Shown here: positions 1 to 40,475 of the stretch, one piece after another
Numbering within the stretch: position 1 is the stretch's first letter
Layout of the letters: the number at the start of each line of letters is the position of its first letter
Source of the DNA: Ruania alba
GTDB taxonomy: Bacteria; Actinomycetota; Actinomycetes; Actinomycetales; Beutenbergiaceae
Direction of reading: 5' to 3'
Assembly (NCBI RefSeq): GCF_900105765.1
Contig: NZ_FNTX01000002.1
Span: 1 to 64,000 of the forward strand
DNA length: 64,000 nucleotides
Position numbers and translations under genes: made by a program
Notes under the pieces: model-generated
The model's database searches: none
The model's input: the letters and a program-made list of their open reading frames with translations, nothing else
What the model was told of the DNA's origin: nothing

Positions 1-99
1 GGATGAACCGGTCTCGACGTTGCCCCAGCCGAAGACGGCCGCACCCAACCAGGTGAGCATCAGTCCACCCCAGACCAGCAGCAGGATCCGCATCCGCAT
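1..99 (-). pseudogene. 5' fragment of a membrane protein gene (copy of 20636-21238)
   Basis: The first 33 codons of the membrane protein encoded at 20636-21238, identical to that gene over these 99 bases. It is cut off by the start of the window, not by a stop codon or mobile element. Confidence 0.8.
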
Positions 100-263
100 C
101 AGTGACTCCATGATGGCGATTCTCCACCGGTTGCGGTGATCAGTCCGCCACTGTGGAACCTGCGGATCGCCAGCCGGCACTCCTGGGGAACCGGGCCGTC
201 GTCGATGCGGGTCTGGATGCCGATCGCCACCACGCCTGAGCGCCGTGTGCCAGGCTGGCTCGC

Positions 264-714
264 GTGCGACGTGAGTTGTGGGCCGTGATCGACCGTTCGC
301 GGTCTCCGGTGTGTTGCACCTGATGCGCCCTGGGCTCTTCGAGTCGATCATCCCGGCGCCGCTGCGGCGCTGGAAGCGGAGCTGGTGATCCTCTCGGGCG
401 TGGCGGAGTGTAGTTGTGCGGCAGGCTGCTGCATCCGCGCACCCGCCGGGTAGCCGGGTGACCAGTGCCGCGCTACTGGTCGCGGTGTGGCCGGCGAACA
501 TGCAGATGAGCGCGGACCTGGCGAGCTGGGCGTGGCGGCACGGTGACGCGGGCTCCTGGGTGCGGTTCGCCGTCTCGGTGGCGCGGCTCCCGCTCCAGGT
601 GCCGGTGATCCGGATCGCGCTGCGGGCCGGCCGGACCGACCGGTCGGGATCACGCCGGAACGAGGACGTCGGAACGGCGAAAGGTCTGCGGACTCACCCC
701 GTAGCGGCGCTTGA
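264..714 (+). pseudogene. DoxX-like protein gene, frameshifted copy of 20010-20465
   Basis: Begins with the same GTG start as the right-arm copy, but one G is missing from a GG pair near base 290, which throws the frame within the first ten codons. Further contractions follow, for example near 640. See the right-arm entry for function. Confidence 0.8.
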
Positions 715-1588
715 ACGCACTGCTGAACGAGAAGGCCGTTCCGTACCCCACCCGGCGGGCGACGGCCGCGAGGGTTCGTCGCTGCCACGGAGCAGATCGG
801 CGGCGAGGGTGAGCCGCCAACCGGTGAGATAGGTCATCGGCGGCTCGCCGACCAGGTCGGTGAACCGGCGCGCGAGCGTCGCGCGGGACACCCCGACAGA
901 GCGCGCCAGGGCATCGATGGTCCACGGTCGGCCGGGTTCGTCTGCAGGGCACGGATCGCCGGACCCACCACCGGGTCGGCGCTCGCCTGCCACCAGCGGG
1001 GCGCGTCGACGGTGGGGTCGGCGAACCAGGTGCGCAGCGTCTGCACCAGCACCAGATCGACGATCCGGTCCAGCACCACCTGCTGCCGAGCGCCTCCTGG
1101 TTCACCTCGGTGTGCAGCACGTCCATGAGGGCGGATCCGCTGCCGACCGGCACCCGCACGGTGCGTGGCAGGGCATCCAGCAGCGCGGCGTCACCTGGCC
1201 GCGCAGGTCGTAGCAAGCGATCACGAAGGCTGTCTCCCGGTGACCGAGTTCCCCCAGGTTCGTGCTCCCAGCAGCATCTCCTCGGCGAGCGAGGCGCCCG
1301 CCGCGTCCCGGCAGACCTCGTCCGTGTCCACGAACACCACCGGGTCACGACCGGGGGAGTCGGAGACCGTGTAGTGATCCGGACCCTTGACCAGCAACAC
1401 GTCACCCGGTACCAGCTCGAGCGGATCCTCTCCGTCGAAGGTCACCCACGCGCGACCACGTGCCATCGCACCAGCGCCAACGGTGCCTCGTCACCGACGC
1501 GGATCGACCACGGTGCGTCGAGCAGGCATCGGAGCACGAAGGCGCCCCGAGCGCGGGGGCCGTCCAGCAGTGCGGAGAGGGCGTCCAT
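650..1588 (-). pseudogene. AraC-family regulator gene, frameshifted copy of 19130-20074
   Basis: The frame is broken several times by single-base losses, for instance near 1085 where a CCC run has become CC. The C-terminal helix-turn-helix part can still be read in pieces. The right-arm copy is intact. Confidence 0.8.
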
Positions 1589-1668
1589 TCCCTGATGTTA
1601 GACGATCACGTATGCCATTGACCGTTCTGCCCATGGATCGTCTTGATTGGAGCCGCTGAGATGAAGAC

Positions 1669-2522
1669 ATGGACACCACAGTGCAGACCCTCGCAGGAAC
1701 GATCCTCATCACCGGCGCGCACGGCAAGACCGGCCGCCGGGTCGCGGCCAGGCTCACTTCGGCCGGGCACCTTGTCCGGAGCGCCTCCCGCTCCGGTGAC
1801 CATCCCTTCGACTGGACCAACCCACACACCTGGCCGGCCGCCGTCGACGGTGTGGCAGCCGCCTACCTGACCTACCAACCCGACCTGGCGCTGCCCGGCG
1901 CACGGGACGCCGTCACGGGTGTGGCGACGGCGCTCGCCGAGCGGGGCGTGCAGCGGGTGGTGCTGCTCTCCGGCCGTGGTGAGCCGCTGGCGCAGGAGTG
2001 TGAACGCGCGTTCCTGGACCTGGTGCCCACTGGCACAGTGGTGCGCTGCGCGTTCTTCGACCAGAACTTCACCGAGGGTCCGTTCGCCCCAGCAGTCATC
2101 GACGGCGTGCTGGCGCTGCCGGGCGCGCCCGACGTTGCCGAACCGTTCCTGGACGCCGAGGACATCGCCGACGTCGTGGTGACAGCCCTGCTGGCGGAGG
2201 CACCGAGCACGAGGGGCGGGTGCTCGAGCTGACCGGACCTCGCGCGGTGCCTCTCGTGGAGACCGCCCGGATCCTGGGAGATGCGGCCGGGCATCGCGTG
2301 CAGTACCAGCAGGTGAGTGCGGCGGATTTCGCTGCCGTGGCCGAAGCGGCAGGTCTGCCGACCGACGAGGCCCGCGGACTTGCCGAGCTGTTCGTGGACC
2401 TGCTCGACGGGCACAACAGCGCCACGACCACCACCGTGGCGGACGTGCTCGGCAGGCCGGCTCGCTCGCTGGAAGAGTTCGCGGCCGAGGCGGCGGCCGG
2501 CGGGGCTTGGGCTAGGGCATGA
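1669..2522 (+). pseudogene. NAD(P)-binding protein gene, frameshifted copy of 18195-19049
   Basis: Open from ATG 1669 to about 2195, where GGG has become GG; the remainder continues in another frame to 2522. The right-arm copy is a single 284-residue frame. Confidence 0.8.
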
Positions 2523-2589
2523 GCGAGGCCGCATGGGCCCGATCTGGATACGGTGGAACCAACCTCGTCGGTGCCCTGGCCCGCCGCAC

Positions 2590-2892
2590 TCAGGGTGTCC
2601 ACGTCTCCTGGAAATCGGGGTGGTCGGAGTAGAGAGTCGCGAGGTGGCGTAGCCCTGAGGGGTACTCACCGACGCGTTCGAGCTCGTGCCAGTCACGAAA
2701 CGCGCCGAACTCGTTCCCGGAGAGGCCTGCGGTCTCCCACAGTTCCTGGACGAGTGCCCGTTTGACTGCGCACTCGGCGAGAATCCGCTCGCGTCCGAAG
2801 GGATGCAGGCCAGCGCCCACTCCGGCCGGGATTCGCAACGCCGCGGCCTCGTCGTCGTCGATCCGGGCATGGATGAACTCGGTGATGGTCAC
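2590..2892 (-). CDS. DUF6221 family protein, intact duplicate of 17825-18127
   Basis: The only full gene in the left arm with an undamaged frame; its 100-residue product is identical to that of 17825-18127. Its survival fits random indels, since it is one of the shortest genes. See the right-arm entry for the description. Confidence 0.75.
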   Translation of the reverse strand: MTITEFIHARIDDDEAAALRIPAGVGAGLHPFGRERILAECAVKRALVQELWETAGLSGNEFGAFRDWHELERVGEYPSGLRHLATLYSDHPDFQETWTP

Positions 2893-2944
2893 TCATCATG
2901 GTCGCACGGCACCACCAACCCGCTCCTGCCGGCAGCGCGTGGAC

Positions 2945-3008
2945 GTATCGACGGCGCTGAGTGAGTTGCTGCCAGATCTGGCACCAGTGGCCTGAGAGGC
3001 GTCGATAC
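2945..3008. repeat. Duplicate copy of palindromic repeat A
   Basis: Mirror copy of the palindromic element at 17709-17772, present only because it lies within the inverted duplication. Confidence 0.8.
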
Positions 3009-3020
3009 TTCCGCGGCCGG

Positions 3021-3564
3021 CTACTCGATGATCTCGCCCTCGGGGAGAGGACGTACCAGACGTCGTTCACGCCCTGGCCGGTGGTGTCGCCGGGGGCGGA
3101 GTCCTGCACCCAGTAGTACAGCGGCCAGCCGTTGTACGAGGCCTGGACCGTGCCGTCGGAGCGTTCGAGGCTGCCGAGCAGCGACGTGTCGATACCTTCG
3201 CCCGCCTCCGGTTCACCCTCCAGGGCCGGCCATGCTTCGAGGCAGTCGCCCTCGCAGTTGCTCACGCCTTCTTCGTCGTTGGTGAACATGTACAAGGTCA
3301 TGCCCTCACCATCGACCAGGATCGTGCCGAGGTCGGTCTCGGCGGTGGTGACAGTCGGGGCGCGGCCATCTCGCCGTTGTCGCTTCCTCGCCGCTCTCCT
3401 CGGTGGCCTCGCCCTCCTCGGTTGTCTCCTCCTCGGCAGGGGCGCCGCCTCCGTAGCCTCCGCCCGCGCCCTCGTCCGTGTCGCCCTCGTCGCGGAGCCG
3501 CATCCTGCCAGCAGGAGGCCCGCGCCATGAGGGTCGCCGTCAGTATGGTCCGGGTCCGTCGCAT
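3021..3564 (-). pseudogene. COG4315-type lipoprotein gene, frameshifted copy of 17148-17696
   Basis: The frame is lost near 3358-3365 where a GGCGG stretch has lost a G, with further losses in the acidic, low-complexity region near 3380-3500. The intact version is at 17148-17696. Confidence 0.8.
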
Positions 3565-3710
3565 GGTCTTCTCCACTCGTCGTGCGTCAGCACCGGCCGA
3601 ACGCCGGTAGGAGTGGTACGTCGGCTGGCGACGAAGGATTGCTCGAGCTGAGGAACAGCGGGATCGCGTACCGGCAATCCCTCCACCCGGGCTGAGCCGT
3701 ATCGTGAAGT

Positions 3711-4290
3711 ATGGGAGCCATGTCACGCGCCGACCGGGCCGCCGACGCCGCCCTGCTGCCGGGCTGGCGGTGGACGATCCCGGTGCGTCGGCGGCGTTCG
3801 TTCGGCGGTTCCAGAGCGCGGTGTTCGGGATGGCAGTGAGCATCACCCGCGACGCGGCGCTCGCGAGGACGTGAGCCAGGAGGTGTTCTTGCGTGCCTGG
3901 GAGCGGCGGCGGTTACGACGCACGCGTGCTTCGGTGCTCACCTGGATCCTCACCATCGCCCGCAACGCCGCCATCGACGCCGTACGGCCCGGCGCAGCAC
4001 TCCCACCGAGGACGACGTCCTCGATCGGCTCGTGCAGGACACACTGACCACCTCGCCGGACCTGAGGAGACGGCCGTGCACCGCGTCGAGGCTGAGCGTG
4101 CGGTGCGCCGGCTGCACCGCCTCTCACCCGAGCAGGCGCGCGCCCGTGGTGCTGGCCGTGCTCGGCGGGTGTACGGCCGCGGAGGTGAGTGTGCGGGAGA
4201 AGATCCCCTGGGCACCGCCAAGACCCGATCCGTGACGGGCTCAGGAAACTACGACGAGGTGTCGAGACCGAACAAGGAGGCGGATCATGA
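3711..4290 (+). pseudogene. ECF sigma factor gene, frameshifted copy of 16411-16998
   Basis: Starts as the right-arm gene does, but a GG has become G near 3762 and at least five further losses follow, so no continuous sigma factor frame remains. Confidence 0.8.
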
Positions 4291-4954
4291 CGTCCAGCCG
4301 GAACGCCGAGTGGCACCCCGACGAGACGCCCTCATCGAGGTGGCGCTCGATCACGCCGATGCCGACACCCGTATCCGGTGAGTGACCACCTGCGCGTGCA
4401 GCGCCTGCCGCCACGACTACGACGAGCGCGCCGGTGCGATCGAGCAGGTGCTCCCCGCCGTACCCGGCACGCACCGGACCCGACTTCGAGTCCGACGTGC
4501 TGGCGCGGTTGCGGGCTGAGCGAACAGGGAGCCCGGGAGAGGCGCGCCTCGCACCAGGGCGAGCGGCCCGTCGGGCCATCTTCGCCGTGGCAGCGGCATG
4601 CTGTTGGGCCTCGCCCTGGACGGGGGGCGGTGGCGCTTGCTGGACGGCGGAACGGAAGCCCCGCCATCAGCCGCCGCCGAGTGGTCGGCCCCCTTGCTGA
4701 CCGCGACGCACCCGGATCGGGCAGGTGTCCCGCGGCTGGGCCCGGACGGGCCGATGCTCGTGGTGGACGTGGCCGAGGGACCCGTGGGGGTGGAATACAC
4801 CTGCCTCGTGGAGTACGCCGACGGTACGAAGGCGGACCTGGGAGCGTGGGCGCTGAGCGCGGACTCGCCGAACCGGTGGATCGTGGCCGATGACGCGTCA
4901 CGTCGGTGGATCTGGTGGCCGAGAGTGGCAGTGTGGTCCAGCGCCGAACTGTGA
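4287..4954 (+). pseudogene. Anti-sigma factor gene, frameshifted copy of 15731-16414
   Basis: Frame broken at 4377 (GGG to GG), just before the zinc-binding motif, and several more times downstream. The intact copy is in the right arm. Confidence 0.8.
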
Positions 4955-4995
4955 GGCATCCTCAAGGATCGAAGCAGTCCGGTTGAATCTCGGCC

Positions 4996-5979
4996 TTACC
5001 GCAGCCCGCCGCTCCTACGGGAAAGGCAGCCGCACGACTCACGCTCAGCCAGCGCATAGTTGGCAACGTTGATGGTCTGGACGAGCTCGTCCTTTCGCTG
5101 GTCCAGTGCCTCGATGGCCGCTCCGGCTATGTCAATGTCGGCGCGACCAGCGACGTCAGCGAGGGCACTGTGAACTGGGCAAGTTCTGTCGCGTTGGCGA
5201 CGGCGAGTGCCAGATCGCCGGCACCGCGACGCCACGCTCATACAGTCGACGCAGGACGCCGAACGCCTGAACGTCGGTTGCCACCAGTGCTGCGGTGGGA
5301 GCCGGGTCCATCGCGAGCAACTGCTCGACGGCGTCGTAGCCGCCGGGTTCGGTCAGGGGCGCTGCGACGACATAGTCGTCGCCGGAATGTAGGTGGTTCT
5401 CGGCCATCACATCGCGCCAGCCCTCATAGCGTCGTTGAGTGGAAACGATGCCCTCAGGGCCGCCGAGCAAGGCAATCTTCTTGTGGCCATGGCTGATCAG
5501 GTGCTGTGTCACCAGTGCTGATCCACGGACCGCGAACTCGGGTCGATCTACCACCACGATCGGTGTGCCCATCGCTGTATAGGGGCCGAAATCCTGATGC
5601 CGGTCCACGCTGACCACGATGATGCCTTCAACACGGCGTTCCACGAGAGCGCGAAGATTGGCCTGCTCCTTCGCCAGGTCCCAATCGGTCGTCGCGACCA
5701 AGAGCTCCAGTCCCTGCGTGAATGCCAGCGAAGAAATCGCCTGAGCGAGGCGTCCGAAGTAGGGCATCACGATGTCCGGAACCACGAGCCCGAGGTCGAT
5801 GAGCGCCCGAGAGCGAGCATCCGGCGACGCCGTCGCGTTGATAGCCCAGGTCGTCGATCGCAGCCAGAACCTTGGCCCGTGCGGCCGATGAGACCGGCCG
5901 GGGCCCATTGTTGAGCACGTAGGACACCACGGCGGTCGACACCCCGGCCCGCAGTGCCACATCTTCTGGTTACTGCCAC
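4996..5979 (-). pseudogene. LacI-family regulator gene, frameshifted copy of 14700-15689
   Basis: The middle of the gene is continuous, but two CC pairs have become C near 5962-5968, and GGG runs have shortened near 5792 and 5821. These losses disconnect the DNA-binding head from the sugar-binding body. Confidence 0.8.
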
Positions 5980-6255
5980 AATTGATGGTAACTGTGGGCG
6001 ATCGAGCGGAAGTCGGGGGACTGTAGCGGGTCCGCTCCGGATTGCACTGCCGTGGCTGCAGGTGCCACCCGGTTAGCTGGAGCACGGTGTGCGACGGCGT
6101 GGCCTCACCGTCCGGGCGGCCTGCCCGTCAAGAACGCGCACGAGCGCGTCACCGACCGGTTTGGGGTTGGCGCTGATCGCGGTCGGGCATCGGGCTCCTT
6201 TACGGCGAGAGGATCGCTGAGTAGCGGAGGAATGAATTGCGTCAGTCTACGCGGG

Positions 6256-6284
6256 TTGACCACGTGTGTCTACGCGGGTAGAGT
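6256..6284 (+). promoter_or_regulatory. Duplicate copy of the sugar operon promoter
   Basis: The -35 TTGACC (6256-6261), 17-base spacer and -10 TAGAGT (6279-6284) are preserved here without change relative to 14391-14419. Confidence 0.5.
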
Positions 6285-6374
6285 CCCATTCGATTTGCCC
6301 CAACGGAATGTGGACTTCACTCGAGCAGACGCGCATCGCGGCGCTGTCTCCTACTACGGCAGTAAGGACGCACG

Positions 6375-7650
6375 ATGAACACAAACCCATCCTGAATCGA
6401 CGTAACTTCCTCGTGCTGGCGCAGGTGCGGCGGAGGCTTCCTCTAGCGAGCTGCGCCGGCGGCAGTGCCGAGAGTGGTCCTGACGAGATCACCGGTGCCG
6501 GCTGGTCGGACGGCCTCAACGATCTCGTCTTCGGGCAGATCAAGACCGACTTCGAGGCAGCCAGCGGCTGACTGTAACTCCGCAGGCCTCGGTGCCCTTC
6601 GACGACTACCAGACCCGGTTCCGCACCCTGATCGCAGGTGGTTCGCCACCGGACCTGATGCGCCTCAATGACGACTTCCTCCGGGAGATGTCGGACAAGG
6701 AGTCGATCCTCGACATCGAGCCCTACCTGTCTGAGTCAGGCGTGGACACCTCGGACTACTTCGAAGGCGTGCTCGACTTCACGGCACTGCCGAACGGCCG
6801 GGCGGCTTGGCCATCGGAGCGCTGCCCGAGTCATCTATTACAACAAGACGCTGTTCGAGGAGAAGGGCGTACCGCTCCCGCCTACGTCCTGGACATCTGA
6901 CGGCTGGACCTGGGAGGACTTCCTGGAGACTGCCCGCGCGCTCACCGAAGGTGACACGTGGGGCGCATGCGTCGTCACCGATACTGCGTACGAGAACACC
7001 TGGGCAGTCAACAATGGTGGGGAGGGCATCTTCTCGGCCGACGGGCGCTCTTCGCCCTTGCCGAGCCGGAGGGCGTTGAAGCGCTGCAATGGGCGGCCGA
7101 CCTCGCGCTCGTGCACGAGGTGGCGCCTCCATGGGCCGAGGTGTCTGGGGACGACTCCGAGCAGCAGCTATTCGTCGGTGGCCGGTGCGCGATGCTCTTC
7201 TCCTCGATGTCAGTCTCCAGTTACTTCAACGAGAATGTCACGGAGTTCGAGTGGGACATCGCCCCCGTCCCGGGCAACGTGAACCAGTTCAGCGAGTCCT
7301 CGATGGCCTTGATGGTGATCCCGACGGCGGCAGCCAACCCCGACGGAGCCTGGGAGTTCCTGAAGTACGTCACCGGGCCCGAAGGTGGTCAGGCGATCGC
7401 GCAGAACCGCGTGGGTGTGCCGCTGAGCAGGACCGCCGCCGAGGCTCTTGAACCCGGTGGAGCCGGCCCTGCGAACATTCATCTGTTCACCGAAGCGGCC
7501 AAGAACAACCGAAGTGTGCATTCCACGACCGCCACCGCAGCGGCAGTGGCGATCTACCGGCCGGCGCTGGAACGTGCCCTGATCGGTGAGATCACGGTGG
7601 AGGAGGCACTGACCGGCGCTCGCGAGCAGGTGGAAGCGGCTCTGGCGTGA
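6375..7650 (+). pseudogene. Sugar-binding lipoprotein gene, frameshifted copy of 13017-14300
   Basis: Three one-base losses between 6414 and 6455 destroy the frame within the signal peptide region, and more occur near 6570, 6805 and 7050. The 3' third is continuous. The right arm holds the intact 427-residue frame. Confidence 0.85.
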
Positions 7651-8580
7651 CGTCGACCAACGTCCCTATCGCGCGCGCAGGGTCGTCGACAGACAGCTCC
7701 GGCCGACGGCGCCGGCTCGGCAGGGGCGAACTCGCCGGTTGGTTGTTCATCGCCCCGCTGATATTCGGCATCCTCGCTTTCCAGCTTGTGCCGATCGTGG
7801 TCTCGATCGTCGCGTCGTTCACCAACTGGGACGGCATCACCACGCCGCAGTTCATCGGCGCTGACAACTACGCAGGACTGGCACAGGACGACCTGTTCTG
7901 GACCACCCTGAGGAACACCGTGCTGTTCACCCTCGGGGTGATACCGCTGACGACCGTGGGAGCCTTGCTCCTGGCGGTGCTGTGCCAGGGAAAGTCGCGT
8001 GTGTCCAATGTGGTCTTCCGGACGGCGTACTTCACGCCCTATGTGACCAGCATCGTGGCGATCGGGTTGGTCTGGAGCAAGCTTCTCGCACCGAGCGGGT
8101 TCATCAACAGCGTCTTCGCCATGGTGGGCGTCGAGGGGCCAGCGTGGCTCACCAACTCGACCTGGGCACTTCCTGCAGTGATCCTCATCTCGGCATGGCA
8201 GGGAATCGGGTATCCGATGATCATCCTGCTCGGCGGCCTCCAGAGCATCGATGACTCACTCAATGAAGCCGCCAAGATCGATGGCGCAGGATCGAGACGA
8301 CGCTTCTTCAGTATCACCCTGCGTTGTTGACGCCTCAGATCTTCTTTGTTCTCGTGACGCAGTTCATCACCTCGTTCCAGGTCTTCGCGTTGATCTTTGT
8401 GCTGACCAGCGGAGGCCCGGGAACGCGACAAATGTCTACATCTACTACCTCTATCAGAACGCTTTCACGTTCGGACAGTTGGGCTACGCCTCGGCCATGG
8501 CCTGGATCCTGTTCATCATCATCGGTGCCGTCACGTTCCTTCAGCTCAGGCTGCAGAAGCGCTGGGTCTTCTACAACTGA
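7647..8580 (+). pseudogene. Sugar ABC permease gene (MalF type), frameshifted copy of 12085-13020
   Basis: Open from the GTG at 7647 to about 8318, where CC has become C; a second loss near 8418 (CCCC to CCC) returns the 3' end to another frame. The intact copy is in the right arm. Confidence 0.85.
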
Positions 8581-8590
8581 TCGGGGAGAC

Positions 8591-9504: not shown

Positions 9505-9563
9505 ATCCACTCATCTCCACGGCGTGGTCGAACACCACCCGTGCCCAACTAGGAAGGATTTCC

Positions 9564-11101: not shown

Positions 11102-11160
11102 GGAAATCCTTCCTAGTTGGGCACGGGTGGTGTTCGACCACGCCGTGGAGATGAGTGGAT

Positions 11161-12074: not shown

Positions 12075-12084
12075 GTCTCCCCGA

Positions 12085-13020: not shown

Positions 13021-14300
13021 GCCAGAGCCGCTTCCACCTGCTCGCGAGCGCCGGTCAGTGCCTCCTCCACCGTGATCTCACCGATCAGGGCACGTTCCAG
13101 CGCCGGCCGGTAGATCGCCACTGCCGCTGCGGTGGCGGTCGTGGAATGCACACTTCGGTTGTTCTTGGCCGCTTCGGTGAACAGATGAATGTTCGCAGGG
13201 CCGGCTCCACCGGGTTCAAGAGCCTCGGCGGCGGTCCTGCTCAGCGGCACACCCACGCGGTTCTGCGCGATCGCCTGACCACCTTCGGGCCCGGTGACGT
13301 ACTTCAGGAACTCCCAGGCTCCGTCGGGGTTGGCTGCCGCCGTCGGGATCACCATCAAGGCCATCGAGGACTCGCTGAACTGGTTCACGTTGCCCGGGAC
13401 GGGGGCGATGTCCCACTCGAACTCCGTGACATTCTCGTTGAAGTAACTGGAGACTGACATCGAGGAGAAGAGCATCGCGCACCGGCCACCGACGAATAGC
13501 TGCTGCTCGGAGTCGTCCCCAGACACCTCGGCCCATGGAGGCGCCACCTCGTGCACGAGCGCGAGGTCGGCCGCCCATTGCAGCGCTTCAACGCCCTCCG
13601 GCTCGGCAAGGGCGAAGGAGCGCCCGTCGGCCGAGAAGATGCCCTCCCCACCATTGTTGACTGCCCAGGTGTTCTCGTACGCAGTATCGGTGACGACGCA
13701 TGCGCCCCACGTGTCACCTTCGGTGAGCGCGCGGGCAGTCTCCAGGAAGTCCTCCCAGGTCCAGCCGTCAGATGTCCAGGACGTAGGCGGGAGCGGTACG
13801 CCCTTCTCCTCGAACAGCGTCTTGTTGTAATAGATGACTCGGGGCAGCGCTCCGATGGCCAAGCCCGCCCGGCCGTTCGGCAGTGCCGTGAAGTCGAGCA
13901 CGCCTTCGAAGTAGTCCGAGGTGTCCACGCCTGACTCAGACAGGTAGGGCTCGATGTCGAGGATCGACTCCTTGTCCGACATCTCCCGGAGGAAGTCGTC
14001 ATTGAGGCGCATCAGGTCCGGTGGCGAACCACCTGCGATCAGGGTGCGGAACCGGGTCTGGTAGTCGTCGAAGGGCACCGAGGCCTGCGGAGTTACAGTC
14101 AGCCCGCTGGCTGCCTCGAAGTCGGTCTTGATCTGCCCGAAGACGAGATCGTTGAGGCCGTCCGACCAGCCGGCACCGGTGATCTCGTCAGGACCACTCT
14201 CGGCACTGCCGCCGGCGCAGCTCGCTAGGAGGAAGCCTCCCGCCGCACCTGCGCCAGCCACGAGGAAGTTACGTCGATTCAGGATGGGGTTTGTGTTCAT
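13017..14300 (-). CDS. Sugar ABC transporter substrate-binding lipoprotein
   Basis: Extracellular solute-binding protein (family 1), 427 residues, that captures sugar for the two permeases. The N-terminus has a twin-arginine signal (RRNFLV, residues 9-14) and a lipobox LASC with Cys28 as the lipid anchor, so it is probably exported folded and tethered outside the membrane. Typical motifs include [10 protein letters not shown] and the C-terminal region with a helix of the type EVEEALTGAREQVEAAL. First gene of the operon, expressed from the promoter at 14391-14419. The substrate cannot be told from sequence. Confidence 0.9.
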   Translation of the reverse strand: MNTNPILNRRNFLVAGAGAAGGFLLASCAGGSAESGPDEITGAGWSDGLNDLVFGQIKTDFEAASGLTVTPQASVPFDDYQTRFRTLIAGGSPPDLMRLNDDFLREMSDKESILDIEPYLSESGVDTSDYFEGVLDFTALPNGRAGLAIGALPRVIYYNKTLFEEKGVPLPPTSWTSDGWTWEDFLETARALTEGDTWGACVVTDTAYENTWAVNNGGEGIFSADGRSFALAEPEGVEALQWAADLALVHEVAPPWAEVSGDDSEQQLFVGGRCAMLFSSMSVSSYFNENVTEFEWDIAPVPGNVNQFSESSMALMVIPTAAANPDGAWEFLKYVTGPEGGQAIAQNRVGVPLSRTAAEALEPGGAGPANIHLFTEAAKNNRSVHSTTATAAAVAIYRPALERALIGEITVEEALTGAREQVEAALA

Positions 14301-14390
14301 CGTGCGTCCTTACTGCCGTAGTAGGAGACAGCGCCGCGATGCGCGTCTGCTCGAGTGAAGTCCACATTCCGTTGGGGCAAATCGAATGGG

Positions 14391-14419
14391 ACTCTACCCG
14401 CGTAGACACACGTGGTCAA
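14391..14419 (-). promoter_or_regulatory. Promoter of the sugar import operon
   Basis: On the minus strand a -35 TTGACC (14419-14414), a 17-base spacer and a -10 TAGAGT (14396-14391) lie about 90 bases before the ATG at 14300. Both boxes are covered by operator-like palindromes, the classical layout for repression by the divergent LacI protein. The 14301-14699 intergenic region contains no other gene. Confidence 0.65.
14392..14407. promoter_or_regulatory. Operator-like palindrome O2 (over the -10 box)
   Basis: CTCTACCCGCGTAGAC shares 14 of 16 bases with O1 and is likewise symmetric at 12 of 16 positions. It overlaps the -10 box, so a LacI dimer at either site should block polymerase. Confidence 0.6.
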
Positions 14420-14430
14420 CCCGCGTAGAC
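14415..14430. promoter_or_regulatory. Operator-like palindrome O1 (over the -35 box)
   Basis: GTCAACCCGCGTAGAC is an imperfect 16-base palindrome (12 of 16 positions symmetric) with the central CG common in LacI-family operators. It overlaps the -35 box. The same core ACCCGCGTAGAC recurs in O2, 23 bases away centre to centre, about two helical turns. Confidence 0.6.
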
Positions 14431-14699
14431 TGACGCAATTCATTCCTCCGCTACTCAGCGATCCTCTCGCCGTAAAGGAGCCCGATGCCCGACCGCGATC
14501 AGCCGCCAACCCCAAACCGGTCGGTGACGCGCTCGTGCGCGGTTCTTGACGGGCAGGCCGCCCCGGACGGTGAGGCCACCGCCGTCGCACACCGTGCTCC
14601 AGCTAACCGGGTGGCACCTGCAGCCACGGCAGTGCAATCCGGAGCGGACCCGCTACAGTCCCCCGACTTCCGCTCGATCGCCCACAGTTACCATCAATT

Positions 14700-15689
14700 G
14701 TGGCAGTAACCAGGAAGGATGTGGCACTGCGGGCCGGGGTGTCGACCGCCGTGGTGTCCTACGTGCTCAACAATGGGCCCCGGCCGGTCTCATCGGCCGC
14801 ACGGGCCAAGGTTCTGGCTGCGATCGACGACCTGGGCTATCAACGCGACGGCGTCGCCCGGATGCTCGCTCTCGGGCGCTCATCGACCCTCGGGCTCGTG
14901 GTTCCGGACATCGTGATGCCCTACTTCGGACGCCTCGCTCAGGCGATTTCTTCGCTGGCATTCACGCAGGGACTGGAGCTCTTGGTCGCGACGACCGATT
15001 GGGACCTGGCGAAGGAGCAGGCCAATCTTCGCGCTCTCGTGGAACGCCGTGTTGAAGGCATCATCGTGGTCAGCGTGGACCGGCATCAGGATTTCGGCCC
15101 CTATACAGCGATGGGCACACCGATCGTGGTGGTAGATCGACCCGAGTTCGCGGTCCGTGGATCAGCACTGGTGACACAGCACCTGATCAGCCATGGCCAC
15201 AAGAAGATTGCCTTGCTCGGCGGCCCTGAGGGCATCGTTTCCACTCAACGACGCTATGAGGGCTGGCGCGATGTGATGGCCGAGAACCACCTACATTCCG
15301 GCGACGACTATGTCGTCGCAGCGCCCCTGACCGAACCCGGCGGCTACGACGCCGTCGAGCAGTTGCTCGCGATGGACCCGGCTCCCACCGCAGCACTGGT
15401 GGCAACCGACGTTCAGGCGTTCGGCGTCCTGCGTCGACTGTATGAGCGTGGCGTCGCGGTGCCCGGCGATCTGGCACTCGCCGTCGCCAACGCGACAGAA
15501 CTTGCCCAGTTCACAGTGCCCTCGCTGACGTCGCTGGTCGCGCCGACCATTGACATAGCCGGAGCGGCCATCGAGGCACTGGACCAGCGAAAGGACGAGC
15601 TCGTCCAGACCATCAACGTTGCCAACTATGCGCTGGCTGAGCGTGAGTCGTGCGGCTGCCTTCCCCGTAGGAGCGGCGGGCTGCGGTAA
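14700..15689 (+). CDS. LacI-family transcriptional regulator of the sugar operon
   Basis: A 329-residue repressor. The N-terminal helix-turn-helix reads [19 protein letters not shown] (residues 8-26), followed by the hinge YQRDGVARMLALG and a periplasmic-binding-like sugar sensor domain to the end. GTG start at 14700; a TTG lies just before it. It is transcribed away from the import operon, and the two operators in the shared region are its likely targets, with the imported sugar as inducer. It converges on the anti-sigma gene with 41 bases between the stops. Confidence 0.9.
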   Translation: MAVTRKDVALRAGVSTAVVSYVLNNGPRPVSSAARAKVLAAIDDLGYQRDGVARMLALGRSSTLGLVVPDIVMPYFGRLAQAISSLAFTQGLELLVATTDWDLAKEQANLRALVERRVEGIIVVSVDRHQDFGPYTAMGTPIVVVDRPEFAVRGSALVTQHLISHGHKKIALLGGPEGIVSTQRRYEGWRDVMAENHLHSGDDYVVAAPLTEPGGYDAVEQLLAMDPAPTAALVATDVQAFGVLRRLYERGVAVPGDLALAVANATELAQFTVPSLTSLVAPTIDIAGAAIEALDQRKDELVQTINVANYALAERESCGCLPRRSGGLR

Positions 15690-15730
15690 GGCCGAGATTC
15701 AACCGGACTGCTTCGATCCTTGAGGATGCC

Positions 15731-16414
15731 TCACAGTTCGGCGCTGGACCACACCTGCCCACTCTCGGCCACCAGATCCACCGACGTGACGCCGTCATCG
15801 GCCACGATCCACCGGTTCGGCGAGTCCGCGCTCAGCGCCCACGCTCCCAGGTCCGCCTTCGTACCGTCGGCGTACTCCACGAGGCAGGTGTATTCCACCC
15901 CCACGGGTCCCTCGGCCACGTCCACCACGAGCATCGGCCCGTCCGGGCCCCAGCCGCGGGACACCTGCCCGATCCGGGTGCCGTCCGCGGTCAGCAAGGG
16001 GGCCGACCACTCGGCGGCGGCTGATGGCGGGGCTTCCGTTCCGCCGTCCAGCAGCGCCACCGCCCCCGCTCCCAGGGCGAGGCCCAACAGCCATGCCGCT
16101 GCCACGGCGAAGATGGCCCGACGGCGGCCGCTCGCCCTGGTGCGAGGCGCGCCTCTCCCGGGCTCCCCTGTTCGCTCAGCCCGCAACCGCGCCAGCACGT
16201 CGGACTCGAAGTCGGGTCCCGGTGCGTGCCGGGGTACGGCGGGGAGCACCTGCTCGATCGCACCGGCGCGCTCGTCGTAGTCGTGGCGGCAGGCGCTGCA
16301 CGCGGCCAGGTGGTCACTCACCCGGATACGGGTGTCGGCATCGGCGTGATCGAGCGCCACCTCGATGAGGGCGTCCTCGTCGGGGTGCCACTCGGCGTTC
16401 CGGCTGGACGTCAT
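15731..16414 (-). CDS. Anti-sigma factor, RskA-like, zinc-binding
   Basis: A 227-residue single-pass membrane protein that should hold the adjacent ECF sigma factor inactive. The N-terminal zinc anti-sigma motif is HLAACSAC (His35, Cys39, Cys42). One membrane helix lies at about residues 100-120 (AIFAVAAAWLLGLALGAGAV), with an extracytoplasmic domain beyond it resembling the RskA C-terminal domain. The ATG overlaps the sigma factor stop by four bases. Release is probably by regulated proteolysis, as known for RskA; that is inference. Confidence 0.85.
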   Translation of the reverse strand: MTSSRNAEWHPDEDALIEVALDHADADTRIRVSDHLAACSACRHDYDERAGAIEQVLPAVPRHAPGPDFESDVLARLRAERTGEPGRGAPRTRASGRRRAIFAVAAAWLLGLALGAGAVALLDGGTEAPPSAAAEWSAPLLTADGTRIGQVSRGWGPDGPMLVVDVAEGPVGVEYTCLVEYADGTKADLGAWALSADSPNRWIVADDGVTSVDLVAESGQVWSSAEL

Positions 16415-16998
16415 GATCCGCCTCCTTGTTCGGTCTCGACACCTCGTCGTAGTTTCCTGAGCCCGTCACGGATCCGGGTCTTGGCGGTGCCCAGGGGGAT
16501 CTTCTCCCGCACACTCACCTCCGCGGCCGTACACCCGCCGAGCACGGCCAGCACCACGGCGCGCGCCTGCTCGGGTGAGAGGCGGTGCAGCCGGCGCACC
16601 GCACGCTCAGCCTCGACGCGGTGCACGGCCGTCTCCTCCAGGTCCGGCGAGGTGGTCAGTGTGTCCTGCACGAGCCGATCGAGGACGTCGTCCTCGGTGG
16701 GAGTGCTGCGCCGGGCCCGTACGGCGTCGATGGCGGCGTTGCGGGCGATGGTGAGGATCCAGGTGAGCACCGAAGCACGCCGTGCGTCGTAACCGCCGGC
16801 CGCTCCCCAGGCACGCAAGAACACCTCCTGGCTCACGTCCTCGGCGAGCGCCGCGTCGCGGGTGATGCTCACTGCCATCCCGAACACCGCGCTCTGGAAC
16901 CGCCGAACGAACGCCGCCGACGCACCGGGATCGTCCACCGCCAGCCCGGCCAGCAGGGCGGCGTCGGCGGCCCGGTCGGCGCGTGACATGGCTCCCAT
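16411..16998 (-). CDS. ECF RNA polymerase sigma factor (SigK-like)
   Basis: A 195-residue group 4 sigma factor. Region 2 contains DVSQEVFLRAWGAAGGYD and LTWILTIARNAAID, for -10 recognition and melting. Region 4 contains LSPEQARAVVLAVLGG followed by a helix-turn-helix ending GTAKTRIRDGLRKLR. Start taken as ATG 16998; a second ATG three codons later is possible. The pairing with an RskA-like anti-sigma and a COG4315 lipoprotein resembles SigK-type modules of actinobacteria. Confidence 0.88.
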   Translation of the reverse strand: MGAMSRADRAADAALLAGLAVDDPGASAAFVRRFQSAVFGMAVSITRDAALAEDVSQEVFLRAWGAAGGYDARRASVLTWILTIARNAAIDAVRARRSTPTEDDVLDRLVQDTLTTSPDLEETAVHRVEAERAVRRLHRLSPEQARAVVLAVLGGCTAAEVSVREKIPLGTAKTRIRDGLRKLRRGVETEQGGGS

Positions 16999-17102
16999 AC
17001 TTCACGATACGGCTCAGCCCGGGTGGAGGGATTGCCGGTACGCGGATCCCGCTGTTCCTCAGCTCGAGCAATCCCTTCGTCGCCAGCCGACGTACCACTC
17101 CT

Positions 17103-17120
17103 ACCGGCCGTTCGGCCGGT
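17103..17120. promoter_or_regulatory. Inverted repeat upstream of the COG4315 lipoprotein gene
   Basis: ACCGGCCG, two T, CGGCCGGT: an 8-base perfect arm with a two-base loop, 27 bases before the ATG. It may be a regulator site or a leader hairpin. Which one is not decidable from sequence. Confidence 0.4.
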
Positions 17121-17147
17121 GCTGACGCACGACGAGTGGAGAAGACC

Positions 17148-17696
17148 ATGCGACGGACCCGGACCATACTGACGGCGACCCTCATGGGCGCGGGCCTCCT
17201 GCTGGCAGGATGCGGCTCCGCCGACGAGGGCGACACGGACGAGGGCGCGGGCGGAGGCTACGGAGGCGGCGCCCCTGCCGAGGAGGAGACAACCGAGGAG
17301 GGCGAGGCCACCGAGGAGAGCGGCGAGGAAGGCGACAACGGCGAGATGGCCGCCGCCCCGACTGTCACCACCGCCGAGACCGACCTCGGCACGATCCTGG
17401 TCGATGGTGAGGGCATGACCTTGTACATGTTCACCAACGACGAAGAAGGCGTGAGCAACTGCGAGGGCGACTGCCTCGAAGCATGGCCGGCCCTGGAGGG
17501 TGAACCGGAGGCGGGCGAAGGTATCGACACGTCGCTGCTCGGCAGCCTCGAACGCTCCGACGGCACGGTCCAGGCCTCGTACAACGGCTGGCCGCTGTAC
17601 TACTGGGTGCAGGACTCCGCCCCCGGCGACACCACCGGCCAGGGCGTGAACGACGTCTGGTACGTCCTCTCCCCCGAGGGCGAGATCATCGAGTAG
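17148..17696 (+). CDS. COG4315-type secreted lipoprotein
   Basis: A 182-residue lipoprotein with a Sec lipobox LAGC (Cys22). An acidic, Gly/Glu-rich linker (residues 23-65) precedes two secreted-repeat units. The first ends in the pattern LYMFTNDEEGVSNCEGDCLEAWPAL, described here by its key residues (two Cys, Trp-Pro), and the second has GWPLYYWVQD. The family is of unknown function but is often near redox or envelope-stress genes. It is transcribed divergently from the ECF sigma factor gene and is a likely target of that sigma factor. Confidence 0.85.
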   Translation: MRRTRTILTATLMGAGLLLAGCGSADEGDTDEGAGGGYGGGAPAEEETTEEGEATEESGEEGDNGEMAAAPTVTTAETDLGTILVDGEGMTLYMFTNDEEGVSNCEGDCLEAWPALEGEPEAGEGIDTSLLGSLERSDGTVQASYNGWPLYYWVQDSAPGDTTGQGVNDVWYVLSPEGEIIE

Positions 17697-17708
17697 CCGG
17701 CCGCGGAA

Positions 17709-17772
17709 GTATCGACGCCTCTCAGGCCACTGGTGCCAGATCTGGCAGCAACTCACTCAGCGCCGTCGATAC
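17709..17772. repeat. Palindromic repeat, copy A
   Basis: A nested palindrome. The outer arms are GTATCGACG and CGTCGATAC; the inner arms form a perfect palindrome TGCCAGATCTGGCA. It lies between a stop codon (17696) and the next gene (17825) and is the most divergent of four unique copies (A-D). Confidence 0.75.
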
Positions 17773-17824
17773 GTCCACGCGCTGCCGGCAGGAGCGGGTT
17801 GGTGGTGCCGTGCGACCATGATGA

Positions 17825-18127
17825 GTGACCATCACCGAGTTCATCCATGCCCGGATCGACGACGACGAGGCCGCGGCGTTGCGAATCCCGGCCGGAGTGG
17901 GCGCTGGCCTGCATCCCTTCGGACGCGAGCGGATTCTCGCCGAGTGCGCAGTCAAACGGGCACTCGTCCAGGAACTGTGGGAGACCGCAGGCCTCTCCGG
18001 GAACGAGTTCGGCGCGTTTCGTGACTGGCACGAGCTCGAACGCGTCGGTGAGTACCCCTCAGGGCTACGCCACCTCGCGACTCTCTACTCCGACCACCCC
18101 GATTTCCAGGAGACGTGGACACCCTGA
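17825..18127 (+). CDS. DUF6221 family protein
   Basis: A 100-residue cytosolic protein of unknown function, common in actinobacteria. The family pattern is visible: N-terminal ITEFIHARIDDDEAAA, a middle RILAECAVKRALV and a C-terminal LRHLATLYSDHPDF. GTG start at 17825. No operon partner. It often accompanies phage-like or accessory genes in other genomes, but nothing here shows that. Confidence 0.8.
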   Translation: MTITEFIHARIDDDEAAALRIPAGVGAGLHPFGRERILAECAVKRALVQELWETAGLSGNEFGAFRDWHELERVGEYPSGLRHLATLYSDHPDFQETWTP

Positions 18128-18194
18128 GTGCGGCGGGCCAGGGCACCGACGAGGTTGGTTCCACCGTATCCAGATCGGGCCCATGCGGCCTCGC

Positions 18195-19049
18195 TCATGC
18201 CCTAGCCCAAGCCCCGCCGGCCGCCGCCTCGGCCGCGAACTCTTCCAGCGAGCGAGCCGGCCTGCCGAGCACGTCCGCCACGGTGGTGGTCGTGGCGCTG
18301 TTGTGCCCGTCGAGCAGGTCCACGAACAGCTCGGCAAGTCCGCGGGCCTCGTCGGTCGGCAGACCTGCCGCTTCGGCCACGGCAGCGAAATCCGCCGCAC
18401 TCACCTGCTGGTACTGCACGCGATGCCCGGCCGCATCTCCCAGGATCCGGGCGGTCTCCACGAGAGGCACCGCGCGAGGTCCGGTCAGCTCGAGCACCCG
18501 CCCCTCGTGCTCGGTGCCCTCCGCCAGCAGGGCTGTCACCACGACGTCGGCGATGTCCTCGGCGTCCAGGAACGGTTCGGCAACGTCGGGCGCGCCCGGC
18601 AGCGCCAGCACGCCGTCGATGACTGCTGGGGCGAACGGACCCTCGGTGAAGTTCTGGTCGAAGAACGCGCAGCGCACCACTGTGCCAGTGGGCACCAGGT
18701 CCAGGAACGCGCGTTCACACTCCTGCGCCAGCGGCTCACCACGGCCGGAGAGCAGCACCACCCGCTGCACGCCCCGCTCGGCGAGCGCCGTCGCCACACC
18801 CGTGACGGCGTCCCGTGCGCCGGGCAGCGCCAGGTCGGGTTGGTAGGTCAGGTAGGCGGCTGCCACACCGTCGACGGCGGCCGGCCAGGTGTGTGGGTTG
18901 GTCCAGTCGAAGGGATGGTCACCGGAGCGGGAGGCGCTCCGGACAAGGTGCCCGGCCGAAGTGAGCCTGGCCGCGACCCGGCGGCCGGTCTTGCCGTGCG
19001 CGCCGGTGATGAGGATCGTTCCTGCGAGGGTCTGCACTGTGGTGTCCAT
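18195..19049 (-). CDS. NmrA-like NAD(P)-binding protein
   Basis: A 284-residue atypical short-chain dehydrogenase of the NmrA/quinone-reductase-like group. The Rossmann nucleotide-binding motif near the start reads ITGAHGKTGRRVA (residues 14-26), followed by a second strand with AASRSGD-type residues. Mid-protein motifs VVLLSGRG and FFDQNF fit this group; the substrate is unknown. Divergent from an AraC regulator with 80 bases between starts, so probably its target. Confidence 0.8.
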   Translation of the reverse strand: MDTTVQTLAGTILITGAHGKTGRRVAARLTSAGHLVRSASRSGDHPFDWTNPHTWPAAVDGVAAAYLTYQPDLALPGARDAVTGVATALAERGVQRVVLLSGRGEPLAQECERAFLDLVPTGTVVRCAFFDQNFTEGPFAPAVIDGVLALPGAPDVAEPFLDAEDIADVVVTALLAEGTEHEGRVLELTGPRAVPLVETARILGDAAGHRVQYQQVSAADFAAVAEAAGLPTDEARGLAELFVDLLDGHNSATTTTVADVLGRPARSLEEFAAEAAAGGAWARA

Positions 19050-19129
19050 GTCTTCATCTCAGCGGCTCCAATCAAGACGATCCATGGGCAGAACGGTCAA
19101 TGGCATACGTGATCGTCTAACATCAGGGA

Positions 19130-20074
19130 ATGGACGCCCTCTCCGCACTGCTGGACGGCCCCCGCGCTCGGGGCGCCTTCGTGCTCCGATGCCTGCTCGA
19201 CGCACCGTGGTCGATCCGCGTCGGTGACGAGGCACCGTTGGCGCTGGTGGCGATGGCACGTGGTCGCGCGTGGGTGACCTTCGACGGAGAGGATCCGCTC
19301 GAGCTGGTACCGGGTGACGTGTTGCTGGTCAAGGGTCCGGATCACTACACGGTCTCCGACTCCCCCGGTCGTGACCCGGTGGTGTTCGTGGACACGGACG
19401 AGGTCTGCCGGGACGCGGCGGGCGCCTCGCTCGCCGAGGAGATGCTGCTGGGAGCACGAACCTGGGGGAACTCGGTCACCGGGGAGACAGCCTTCGTGAT
19501 CGCTTGCTACGACCTGCGCGGCCAGGTGACGCCGCGGCTGCTGGATGCCCTGCCACGCACCGTGCGGGTGCCGGTCGGCAGCGGATCCGCCCTCATGGAC
19601 GTGCTGCACACCGAGGTGAACCAGGAGGCGCTCGGGCAGCAGGTGGTGCTGGACCGGATCGTCGATCTGGTGCTGGTGCAGACGCTGCGCACCTGGTTCG
19701 CCGACCCCACCGTCGACGCGCCCCGCTGGTGGCAGGCGAGCGCCGACCCGGTGGTGGGTCCGGCGATCCGTGCCCTGCAGACGAACCCGGCCCGACCGTG
19801 GACCATCGATGCCCTGGCGCGCTCTGTCGGGGTGTCCCGCGCGACGCTCGCGCGCCGGTTCACCGACCTGGTCGGCGAGCCGCCGATGACCTATCTCACC
19901 GGTTGGCGGCTCACCCTCGCCGCCGATCTGCTCCGTGGCAGCGACGAGACCCTCGCGGCCGTCGCCCGCCGGGTGGGGTACGGAACGGCCTTCTCGTTCA
20001 GCAGTGCGTTCAAGCGCCGCTACGGGGTGAGTCCGCAGACCTTTCGCCGTTCCGACGTCCTCGTTCCGGCGTGA
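19130..20074 (+). CDS. AraC-family transcriptional regulator
   Basis: A 314-residue regulator. The N-terminal cupin_6-type ligand domain (about 1-195) is followed by two AraC helix-turn-helices. The first is WTIDALARSVGVSRATLARRF and the second ends GYGTAFSFSSAFKRRYGVSP (residues 283-302). It probably activates the divergent NAD(P)-binding gene. The 3' end overlaps the convergent DoxX-like gene by 65 bases. Confidence 0.88.
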   Translation: MDALSALLDGPRARGAFVLRCLLDAPWSIRVGDEAPLALVAMARGRAWVTFDGEDPLELVPGDVLLVKGPDHYTVSDSPGRDPVVFVDTDEVCRDAAGASLAEEMLLGARTWGNSVTGETAFVIACYDLRGQVTPRLLDALPRTVRVPVGSGSALMDVLHTEVNQEALGQQVVLDRIVDLVLVQTLRTWFADPTVDAPRWWQASADPVVGPAIRALQTNPARPWTIDALARSVGVSRATLARRFTDLVGEPPMTYLTGWRLTLAADLLRGSDETLAAVARRVGYGTAFSFSSAFKRRYGVSPQTFRRSDVLVPA

Positions 20075-20465
20075 TCCCGACCGGGTCGGTCCGGCCGGCC
20101 CGCAGCGCGATCCGGATCACCGGCACCTGGAGCGGGAGCCGCGCCACCGAGACGGCGAACCGCACCCAGGAGCCCGCGTCACCGTGCCGCCACGCCCAGC
20201 TCGCCAGGTCCGCGCTCATCTGCATGTTCGCCGGCCACACCGCGACCAGTAGCGCGGCACTGGTCCACCCGGCTACCCGGCGGGTGCGCGGATGCAGCAG
20301 CCCTGCCGCACAACTACACTCCGCCACGCCCGAGAGGATCACCAGCTCCCGCTTCCAGCGCCGCAGCGGCGCCGGGATGATCGACTCGAAGAGCCCAGGG
20401 CGCATCAGGTGCAACACACCGGAGACCGCGAACGGTCCGATCACGGCCCACAACTCACGTCGCAC
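20010..20465 (-). CDS. DoxX-like membrane protein
   Basis: About 151 residues with three or four membrane helices. The N-terminal GVLHLMRPGLFESIIPAPL and the motif VILSGVAECSCAAGLL, then VAVWPANMQMSAD, are typical of the DoxX-like group. Function unclear. GTG start at 20465. The last 22 codons lie on the opposite strand of the AraC gene's end, so the true stop may be earlier in related strains. Confidence 0.7.
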   Translation of the reverse strand: MRRELWAVIGPFAVSGVLHLMRPGLFESIIPAPLRRWKRELVILSGVAECSCAAGLLHPRTRRVAGWTSAALLVAVWPANMQMSADLASWAWRHGDAGSWVRFAVSVARLPLQVPVIRIALRAGRTDPVGITPERGRRNGERSADSPRSGA

Positions 20466-20635
20466 GCGAGCCAGCCTGGCACACGGCGCTCAGGGCGTGG
20501 TGGCGATCGGCATCCAGACCCGCATCGACGACGGGCCCGGTTCCCCCAGGAGTGCCGGCTGGCGATCCGCAGGTTCCACAGTGGCGGACTGATCACCGCA
20601 ACCGGTGGGAGAATCGCCATCATGGGAGGTCACTG

Positions 20636-21238
20636 ATGCGGATGCGGATCCTGCTGCTGGTCTGGGGTGGACTGATGCTCACCTGGTTGGGTGCGGCCGT
20701 CTTCGGCTGGGGCAACGTCGAGACCGGTTCATCCCGACCACTGGTGCAGATCAGCAGCGCAACCAGCCTGGTGCCCAACGACATCCAGGCTCAGGTCTCT
20801 CCCGAGTACTACCTCGCCGAGGGCCATCTCCTGGTGCTGATCGCTGCCTCTGCGCTGAGCGTGCTGTTGCCCCTGCGCGCGAAGGCGCTGCGGATCCTGG
20901 CCGGGCTGGCCTACGTGGCCACCGGCGGGTACCTGGGCTACACCGCGTGGTCGGGCAGCCCACCGGCCGAGATCGGCACGATGGTGGGATACGTCGTGGC
21001 CGGGTCGTTGGTGCTGGCCGGGTTGCTGTTCTTCGCGGACCGGCGCGGGGGCGTCGGCGTGGTAGCCGGGATCGCGGCGCTGGCAGGTGCGGCCTGGAAC
21101 ACCCACGCTGTGGTGCTGGTGGCCTTGCCCGGCCGCCCGGGCCTGGGCGCGGTGTGCCTGACCGTGGGCTACCTGCTGGTGGCAGCGGGGGCGTTTGGTG
21201 CGCTGGGTGACCGAGCCCGCAAGAATCGACGATCCTGA
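20636..21238 (+). CDS. Membrane protein of unknown function
   Basis: A 200-residue protein with about five membrane segments (near residues 5-25, 65-85, 92-112, 120-140, 145-185). I do not recognise the family. Start ATG 20636 follows GGGAGG. The right arm of the duplication ends within codon 33, so sequence from 20735 on is unique. Its last codons, RKNRRS-stop, lie inside palindromic repeat copy B, which supplies the stop codon. Confidence 0.7.
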   Translation: MRMRILLLVWGGLMLTWLGAAVFGWGNVETGSSRPLVQISSATSLVPNDIQAQVSPEYYLAEGHLLVLIAASALSVLLPLRAKALRILAGLAYVATGGYLGYTAWSGSPPAEIGTMVGYVVAGSLVLAGLLFFADRRGGVGVVAGIAALAGAAWNTHAVVLVALPGRPGLGAVCLTVGYLLVAAGAFGALGDRARKNRRS

Positions 21239-21288
21239 GCACATTGCTGCCGAATGTGGCGGCAGCGTGCCCGGGCCCGTCGATAGTT
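21221..21288. repeat. Palindromic repeat, copy B
   Basis: Outer arms are AATCGACGATCCTGAG and the degraded complement CCGTCGATAGTT; the inner arms are CTGCCG and CGGCAG. It sits exactly between two convergent genes and contains the stop codon of the upstream one, so it probably acts as a bidirectional terminator as well. Confidence 0.75.
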
Positions 21289-22122: not shown

Positions 22123-22177
22123 CAGGCTGCCCGCAGCGCCCGCGCGCCGGGAGGGGGTGTGGATAACCTCCGGGTGG

Positions 22178-40444: not shown

Positions 40445-40475
40445 TGTCCCTCGACCTGCTCACGCAGGTCGACTG

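What the first reader, a model, noticed from the sequence alone, without database searches (positions are those of the whole stretch)
1..20734. Ten-kilobase inverted duplication, probably a fold-back artefact at a contig end
Arms 1-10320 and 10341-20734 mirror each other gene for gene. The left arm is net 74 bases shorter, and every difference I compared in detail but two (a G-to-A change near 5024 and the fold junction) is loss of one base from a short G/C run. This indel spectrum, unbiased between coding and non-coding DNA, is that of uncorrected single-molecule reads, not of evolving pseudogenes. The fold lies inside a gene. Gene counts, regulator numbers and any claim of a palindromic replicon end from this region would be wrong if the left arm is accepted as real.
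Basis: partly seen in the sequence, partly recalled or inferred. Interest (0 to 1): 0.8.

Follow-up and report, generated by a model that had tools for sequence, protein, structure and literature searches.

The report
False mirror-image copy at contig end
The first 10 kb of this bacterial sequence is a spurious, error-marked mirror copy of the next 10 kb, most likely left by a folded-back DNA read at a contig end; it is an ordinary assembly artefact and the genes in it should not be counted.

Summary
The inverted duplication is in the record: window 1-20734 aligns to its own reverse complement at 99.1%. The assembly supplies the test. The window starts contig C2 of two. Contig C1 begins with the right arm (C1:1-9017 = window 19366-10341 reversed), then runs past the fold into unique sequence and completes the interrupted gene as an intact 728-aa GHL6-type glycosidase frame. 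Two of two relatives aligned there are colinear with C1. The other two contig ends also overlap, by 10.8 kb, so C1 and C2 without the left arm close a circle of about 4.80 Mb. C1 agrees with the right arm at 61 of 65 arm differences. Ten of ten arm genes checked are split in the left arm. The far end of C1, which has no fold, shows the same loss of G/C bases. The fold lies in a native imperfect hairpin: sequence passes through the native loop, then switches strand inside the stem. 'Uncorrected single-molecule reads' fits only the apex; the arm is partly corrected. No reads were available.

The parts
1..10308 (-). Spurious left arm: mirror copy of 10357-20734, with 77 deletion events, mostly single G/C bases; splits all ten arm genes checked
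10309..10356 (+). Fold apex: corresponds to C1 9007-9070 read colinearly through the native hairpin loop, with 16 bases missing in 7 places and one mismatch
10356..10357 (.). Strand-switch point: stem arm 2 sequence (ending CCACCAGAA, as on the C1 plus strand) is followed by the complement of stem arm 1 (TCCGCCGTTGG, as on the C1 minus strand)
10341..20734 (+). Right arm: the genuine locus apart from its first bases at the fold; window 10341-19366 is also present as the first 9017 bases of contig C1
10346..11101 (-). First 252 codons of the interrupted GHL6-family glycosidase gene; the whole 728-codon gene is on C1 8256-10442
11161..12057 (-). ABC permease gene (BPD_transp_1; start placed approximately from C1 7300), broken in the right arm too by a missing C at 11835 that C1 and the left arm both have
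12085..13020 (-). ABC permease (BPD_transp_1), whole here, split in left arm
13017..14300 (-). Extracellular solute-binding protein (SBP_bac_1), whole here, split in left arm
14700..15689 (+). LacI-family regulator, whole here, split in left arm
15731..16414 (-). Putative anti-sigma factor (no Pfam hit; named from its position beside the sigma gene), whole here, split in left arm
16411..16998 (-). ECF-type sigma factor, whole here, split in left arm
17145..17696 (+). Lipoprotein_15 repeat lipoprotein, open here, split in left arm
18195..19049 (-). NmrA-like NAD(P)-binding protein, open here, split in left arm
19130..20074 (+). Cupin_6/AraC-type regulator, open here, split in left arm

Best explanation
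Window 1-10340 is an assembly artefact. One or a few long reads from a folded-back DNA molecule ended contig C2. The real chromosome goes from the right arm, across the fold point, into contig C1. The likely molecular origin (inferred) is strand switching at a native imperfect hairpin in the glycosidase gene, CGGCGGATCCTGCGTGGCTCCCCG ... CGGGGAGAGCTTCCACCAGAACGCCG. A 3' end in the second stem arm paired with the first arm and was extended along its own strand during library preparation, end repair or amplification, giving a hairpin molecule that was sequenced as a palindrome. The assembler used it as the end of C2. Other reads polished the right arm but only partly corrected the left arm and could not correct the apex. 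Shown: native continuation on C1, overlap at both contig joins, error placement, and the strand switch inside the hairpin. Inferred: the snap-back chemistry, the sequencing platform, the polishing history and the number of reads.
For: C1:1-9017 matches window 19366-10341 and then continues colinearly into sequence found once in the genome. The 728-aa frame is intact on C1 and cut at the fold in C2. Two of two relatives aligned there, L019 (same genus, unnamed) and L012 (Candidatus Ruania gallistercoris), run through the fold point without a break. The C1 end and C2 end overlap by 10.8 kb in the orientation needed to close a circle. C1 sides with the right arm at 61 of 65 differences within its span, the last 34 bases at the fold set aside. 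Ten of ten arm genes are split in the left arm; of the seven whose reference protein came from C1, six are whole in the right arm. The same G/C loss appears at the unfolded C1 end (43 of 49 events there are C1-end losses), rising towards the end. The apex reproduces the native loop with 16 of 64 bases missing, then switches strand within complementary stem arms. Fold-back reads are documented at about 0.55-0.6% of nanopore genomic reads (PMC12870357, Results read), and inverted-repeat chimeras at 0.18-7.33% with ligation preparation (PMC13141652, passages).
Against: No reads were available, so single-read support and falling coverage are not shown. The hairpin is not rare: 12% of 427 comparison windows on C1 score at least as high, so its causal role is weakly supported. 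The C missing from TGCGTGG in the left arm is not a run deletion; in the right arm it fits stem arm 2, but in the left arm it is unexplained. At 11835 the left arm, not the right, agrees with C1. C1 is itself imperfect near its start: an 11-base difference where both arms agree against it, and a split NmrA-like gene.
Confidence: 0.95

Rival explanations
1. A real inverted duplication (palindromic junction) exists in a minority of cells, formed in vivo by replication-template switching at the same hairpin, and the assembler picked it up alongside the normal arrangement.
For: The strand switch within a quasi-palindrome is also what in vivo template switching would leave. At window 11835 the left arm agrees with C1 against the right arm, so it is not a plain copy of the right-arm consensus.
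Against: Ten of ten genes are split in the left arm by scattered G/C losses. The contig holds nothing beyond the left arm, and C1 carries the normal arrangement. The apex has lost 16 of 64 native bases in 7 scattered places, which looks like uncorrected read error.
Confidence: 0.04
2. The palindrome is the end of a linear replicon or a terminal inverted repeat.
For: It sits at a contig end, and some actinomycetes have linear chromosomes (general knowledge).
Against: Both ends of C1 overlap both ends of C2, closing a circle. The fold lies inside a gene that is whole on C1. The outer 12 kb at the two ends of the related genome G003's main contig share no repeat.
Confidence: 0.005
3. Still an artefact (this share lies inside the 0.95 given above), but the mirror comes from the instrument or basecaller (unsplit template and complement strands, or an undetected hairpin adapter) and not from a folded DNA molecule.
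For: Such joins give the same gross structure. PMC13141652 hypothesises that consecutive reads mistaken for one explain part of the nanopore chimeras (passages).
Against: The apex holds native loop sequence and a switch inside complementary stem arms. A joined strand pair or an adapter would not be expected to reproduce these.
Confidence: 0.1

Closest known systems
Fold-back (inverted-repeat chimera) long-read artefacts, as in PMC12870357 and PMC13141652
   Same: Two near-perfect mirrored segments of the same locus with little sequence between them, while the reference continues normally
   Different: Here it was carried into an assembled contig; the apex holds a short native loop
Inverted chimeras of multiple displacement amplification (PMC1855051; palindromic reads, PMC6218980)
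   Same: A 3' end re-primes at a short complementary stretch nearby and yields an inverted sequence
   Different: Whether this genome was amplified is not known; only 1 of 4 contig ends is folded (20 kb examined at each of the other three)
Terminal inverted repeats of linear actinomycete chromosomes (recalled)
   Same: Long inverted repeat near a contig end
   Different: The contigs close a circle, and the arms abut in place of lying at opposite ends

Membership tests
Fold-back long-read artefact | Second segment maps to the same place as the first on the opposite strand (within 200 bp, PMC12870357) | tested here: met
   Arms pair base 1 with base 20734, turning around 10320-10341
Fold-back long-read artefact | Native sequence continues past the fold in other data | tested here: met
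   C1 continues uniquely through the fold into an intact gene; two relatives agree
Fold-back long-read artefact | Other reads cover the fold location with no sign of a breakpoint | not testable with these tools
   No reads held; C1 is a second assembled contig, not a read count
Fold-back long-read artefact | Uncorrected or thinly corrected quality in the spurious part | tested here: met
   77 left-arm deletion events; apex missing 16 of 64 bases; same spectrum at the C1 end. Losses are fewer next to the fold, so correction was partial
Self-primed (snap-back) chimera | Complementary stretch at the switch point | tested here: met
   Imperfect stem; switch inside it. Comparable stems occur in 12% of 427 comparison windows, so the match is weak evidence of cause
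Multiple displacement amplification chimera | DNA was amplified with phi29 polymerase | not testable with these tools
   No sample record for this genome is held
Linear replicon with terminal inverted repeats | Repeat lies at true replicon ends | tested here: not met
   C1 and C2 overlap at both ends
Real biological inverted duplication | Both copies are functional or decay with an evolutionary spectrum | tested here: not met
   10 of 10 genes split in the left arm, almost only by single G/C losses, 2 substitutions in 10 kb

The most novel reading that the evidence does not exclude
A minority of cells really carry a 10-kb-arm palindromic inverted duplication, formed in vivo by template switching at the hairpin in the glycosidase gene, and the assembly caught this rearrangement as it arose.
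Probability: 0.04. Interest if true: 0.4.

Novelty: not a real feature. Interest (0 to 1): 0.1.

Why it matters
The record carries about 30 kb of false or redundant sequence: the left arm plus two unmerged contig overlaps (lengths). It holds a false second, frame-broken set of the ten genes checked, including an ECF-type sigma factor and LacI- and AraC-type regulators. One glycosidase gene appears whole on one contig and truncated on the other. Counts of paralogues, pseudogenes or regulators, or a claim of a palindromic replicon end, would be wrong. The case shows that contig overlap, frame integrity and an unfolded contig end as control can largely settle such a question without raw reads.

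Tried and rejected
Linear replicon end: rejected because both contig joins overlap. Evolving pseudogenes: rejected because differences are almost all single G/C losses, equally frequent in coding and non-coding DNA. Hairpin as a strong cause of the fold: not supported statistically, 12% of comparison windows score as high. Fully uncorrected left arm: not supported; losses thin out next to the fold. A first three-way alignment split paired deletions into false substitutions and ran C1 past the fold, so its counts were not used; one search replaced it. In one search the last 34 bases at the fold were set aside before the 61-of-65 count, and agreement meant no difference between C1 and the right arm within 8 bases. 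In one search the reference proteins came from C1 for seven genes and from the right arm for three, so the wholeness of those three in the right arm is by construction. Related genome G003: no folded or shared contig ends seen in the stretches taken, 12 kb at each end of its main contig and the first 20 kb of its 38-kb contig. Two literature searches showed no paper on folded contig ends in bacterial assemblies that I recognised from the listings (10 of 217 listed, 4 of 4). Searches for the genus showed no paper that I recognised as describing this genome (20 of 41 listed, 6 of 6); the organism's own name is not known to me. The one scan of genome contigs allowed names a relative, not this genome.

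Full report
Observation. The duplication is in the sequence as described. Self-BLAST pairs window 1-20734 with its own reverse complement over 20,817 columns at 99.14% identity. With an alignment that prefers gaps to mismatches, the left arm has 77 deletion events (79 bases, all G or C), 73 of them one base from a run of two or more; at 4 places the right arm lacks a base; there are 2 substitutions. Losses climb with run length: 35 of 1214 G/C runs of two, 25 of 274 of three, 10 of 50 of four, 3 of 12 of five.

Where the window lies. It is bases 1-64000 of contig C2 in a two-contig assembly of 4,830,506 bases (C1 2,284,280; C2 2,546,226). The genus Ruania (Actinomycetota) is therefore an inference.

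The test the assembly provides. C1:1-9017 equals window 19366-10341 reversed, at 99.8%. Beyond the fold point C1 continues into sequence found once in the genome. On C1 the interrupted gene is an open frame of 728 codons, C1 8256-10442, with a GHL6 (hypothetical glycosyl hydrolase 6) domain. In C2 only its first 252 codons remain in the right arm, plus fragments in the left arm. Two of two relatives aligned there, L019 (same genus, unnamed) and L012, match C1 without a break across the fold. In the relatives search 11 of 29 genomes, the own genome included, have some match to the protein; in G003 and G007 the close homologue covers 728 and 727 of 728 residues with no stop. G007 may be the same genome as L012 (similar contig coordinates), so I count them once.

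One circle. The last 10.8 kb of C1 matches the last 10.8 kb of C2 in inverted orientation with no mismatch and 50 gap openings. With the overlap at the window end, the contigs close into one circle of about 4.80 Mb (an estimate by subtraction), from which only the left arm is left over. A linear-replicon end is thereby excluded for practical purposes. Of the four contig ends only this one is folded (the window here, 20 kb examined at each of the other three).

Which arm is right. Within the C1 span, leaving out the last 34 bases at the fold, C1 agrees with the right arm at 61 of 65 arm differences (57 left losses, 3 extra left bases, 1 substitution). Of the other four, three lie where C1 itself differs nearby, and in one (window 11835) C1 and the left arm agree against the right. 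In a protein-level check of ten arm genes, 10 of 10 are split in the left arm. Seven reference proteins came from C1; six of these are whole in the right arm, the exception being the permease broken at 11835. Three came from the right arm, where they are whole by construction. On C1 those three fare less well: the NmrA-like gene is split, the lipoprotein matches 176 of 183 residues, and the AraC-type gene is cut by the contig end. The left-arm losses fall in coding DNA in proportion (59 of 77; 81-82% expected).

Control. The far end of C1, which has no fold, shows the same kind of loss against C2: 43 C1-end loss events (41 single bases in runs, 2 of two bases) and 6 C2-end events, no substitution. 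C1's losses rise towards its end: 0, 0, 0, 0, 1, 0, 3, 5, 9, 15, 10 per kb. The error pattern thus belongs to contig ends of this assembly more generally and needs no special story for the left arm; thin coverage as its cause is an inference. In the left arm the losses are fewer next to the fold (9 observed, 20.4 expected from run lengths) than further out (68 against 52.6). The arm is therefore not uniformly raw.

The apex. Window 10309-10356 is C1 9007-9070 read straight through, with 47 identical bases, one mismatch and 16 bases missing in 7 places. At 10356/10357 the sequence changes from the C1 plus strand (CCACCAGAA) to the C1 minus strand (TCCGCCGTTGG). The two stretches involved are the arms of an imperfect hairpin (predicted -17.8 kcal/mol for 90 nt with DNA parameters). 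The apparent T/C substitution at 10355 fits the native difference between those stem arms. This is what self-priming of a 3' end at a hairpin would leave. Read in the other direction it could equally be a template switch, so the direction is not determined. Comparable stems are common here (12% of 427 windows). A C missing from the left arm in TGCGTGG remains unexplained.

Literature. PMC12870357 (Results and Discussion read) reports fold-back reads at about 0.55-0.6% of nanopore genomic reads and virtually none in PacBio HiFi. PMC13141652 (passages) reports inverted-repeat chimeras at 0.18-7.33% with ligation preparation. PMC1855051 (passages) describes displaced 3' ends re-priming at short complementary stretches during amplification. 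PMC6218980 (abstract and Background read) describes palindromic reads after amplification. PMC7229812 (abstract and Results read) reports poor nanopore base calls in the second half of true inverted duplications; since the right arm here appears polished by other reads, it does not help to tell which half was read second. The platform used for this genome is unknown to me.

Verdict. The finding is a correct and useful artefact call: observation confirmed, interpretation supported, with small corrections. It is not a biological feature.

Noticed in passing
C1 end (L010) and C2 end (L011): The other two contig ends overlap by 10.8 kb in inverted orientation, so the assembly is one unclosed circle with two unmerged overlaps.
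   Followed up: yes
window 11835: A C missing from the right arm but present in the left arm and in C1 splits an ABC permease gene.
   Followed up: yes
L009 (C1) about 2263-2275; window 17082-17103: C1 lacks about 11 bases that both arms have, in the divergent intergenic region between the ECF sigma gene and the Lipoprotein_15 gene; by eye, three relatives look more like the arms. Probably a consensus error near the C1 end, possibly a variant in the culture.
   Followed up: partly
window 17700-17771: A stretch of about 70 bases just after the Lipoprotein_15 gene has matches of 73-81% at several other places in the genome, on both strands: a short dispersed repeat.
   Followed up: no
window 40475-40514: A 40-base perfect palindrome by self-BLAST.
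   Followed up: no
window 58656-58793: A short tandem array, apparently with a 7-base period (offsets).
   Followed up: no
window 21219-21292 and 22174-22247: A 74-base inverted repeat, 88% identical, just beyond the duplicated region.
   Followed up: no
L009 (C1) 5056-15403: The real locus looks like a carbohydrate-use cluster: binding protein, two permeases, GHL6 glycosidase, then two sulfatase-like frames and an arabinofuranosidase-like frame (these three judged by eye). The contig break splits it.
   Followed up: no
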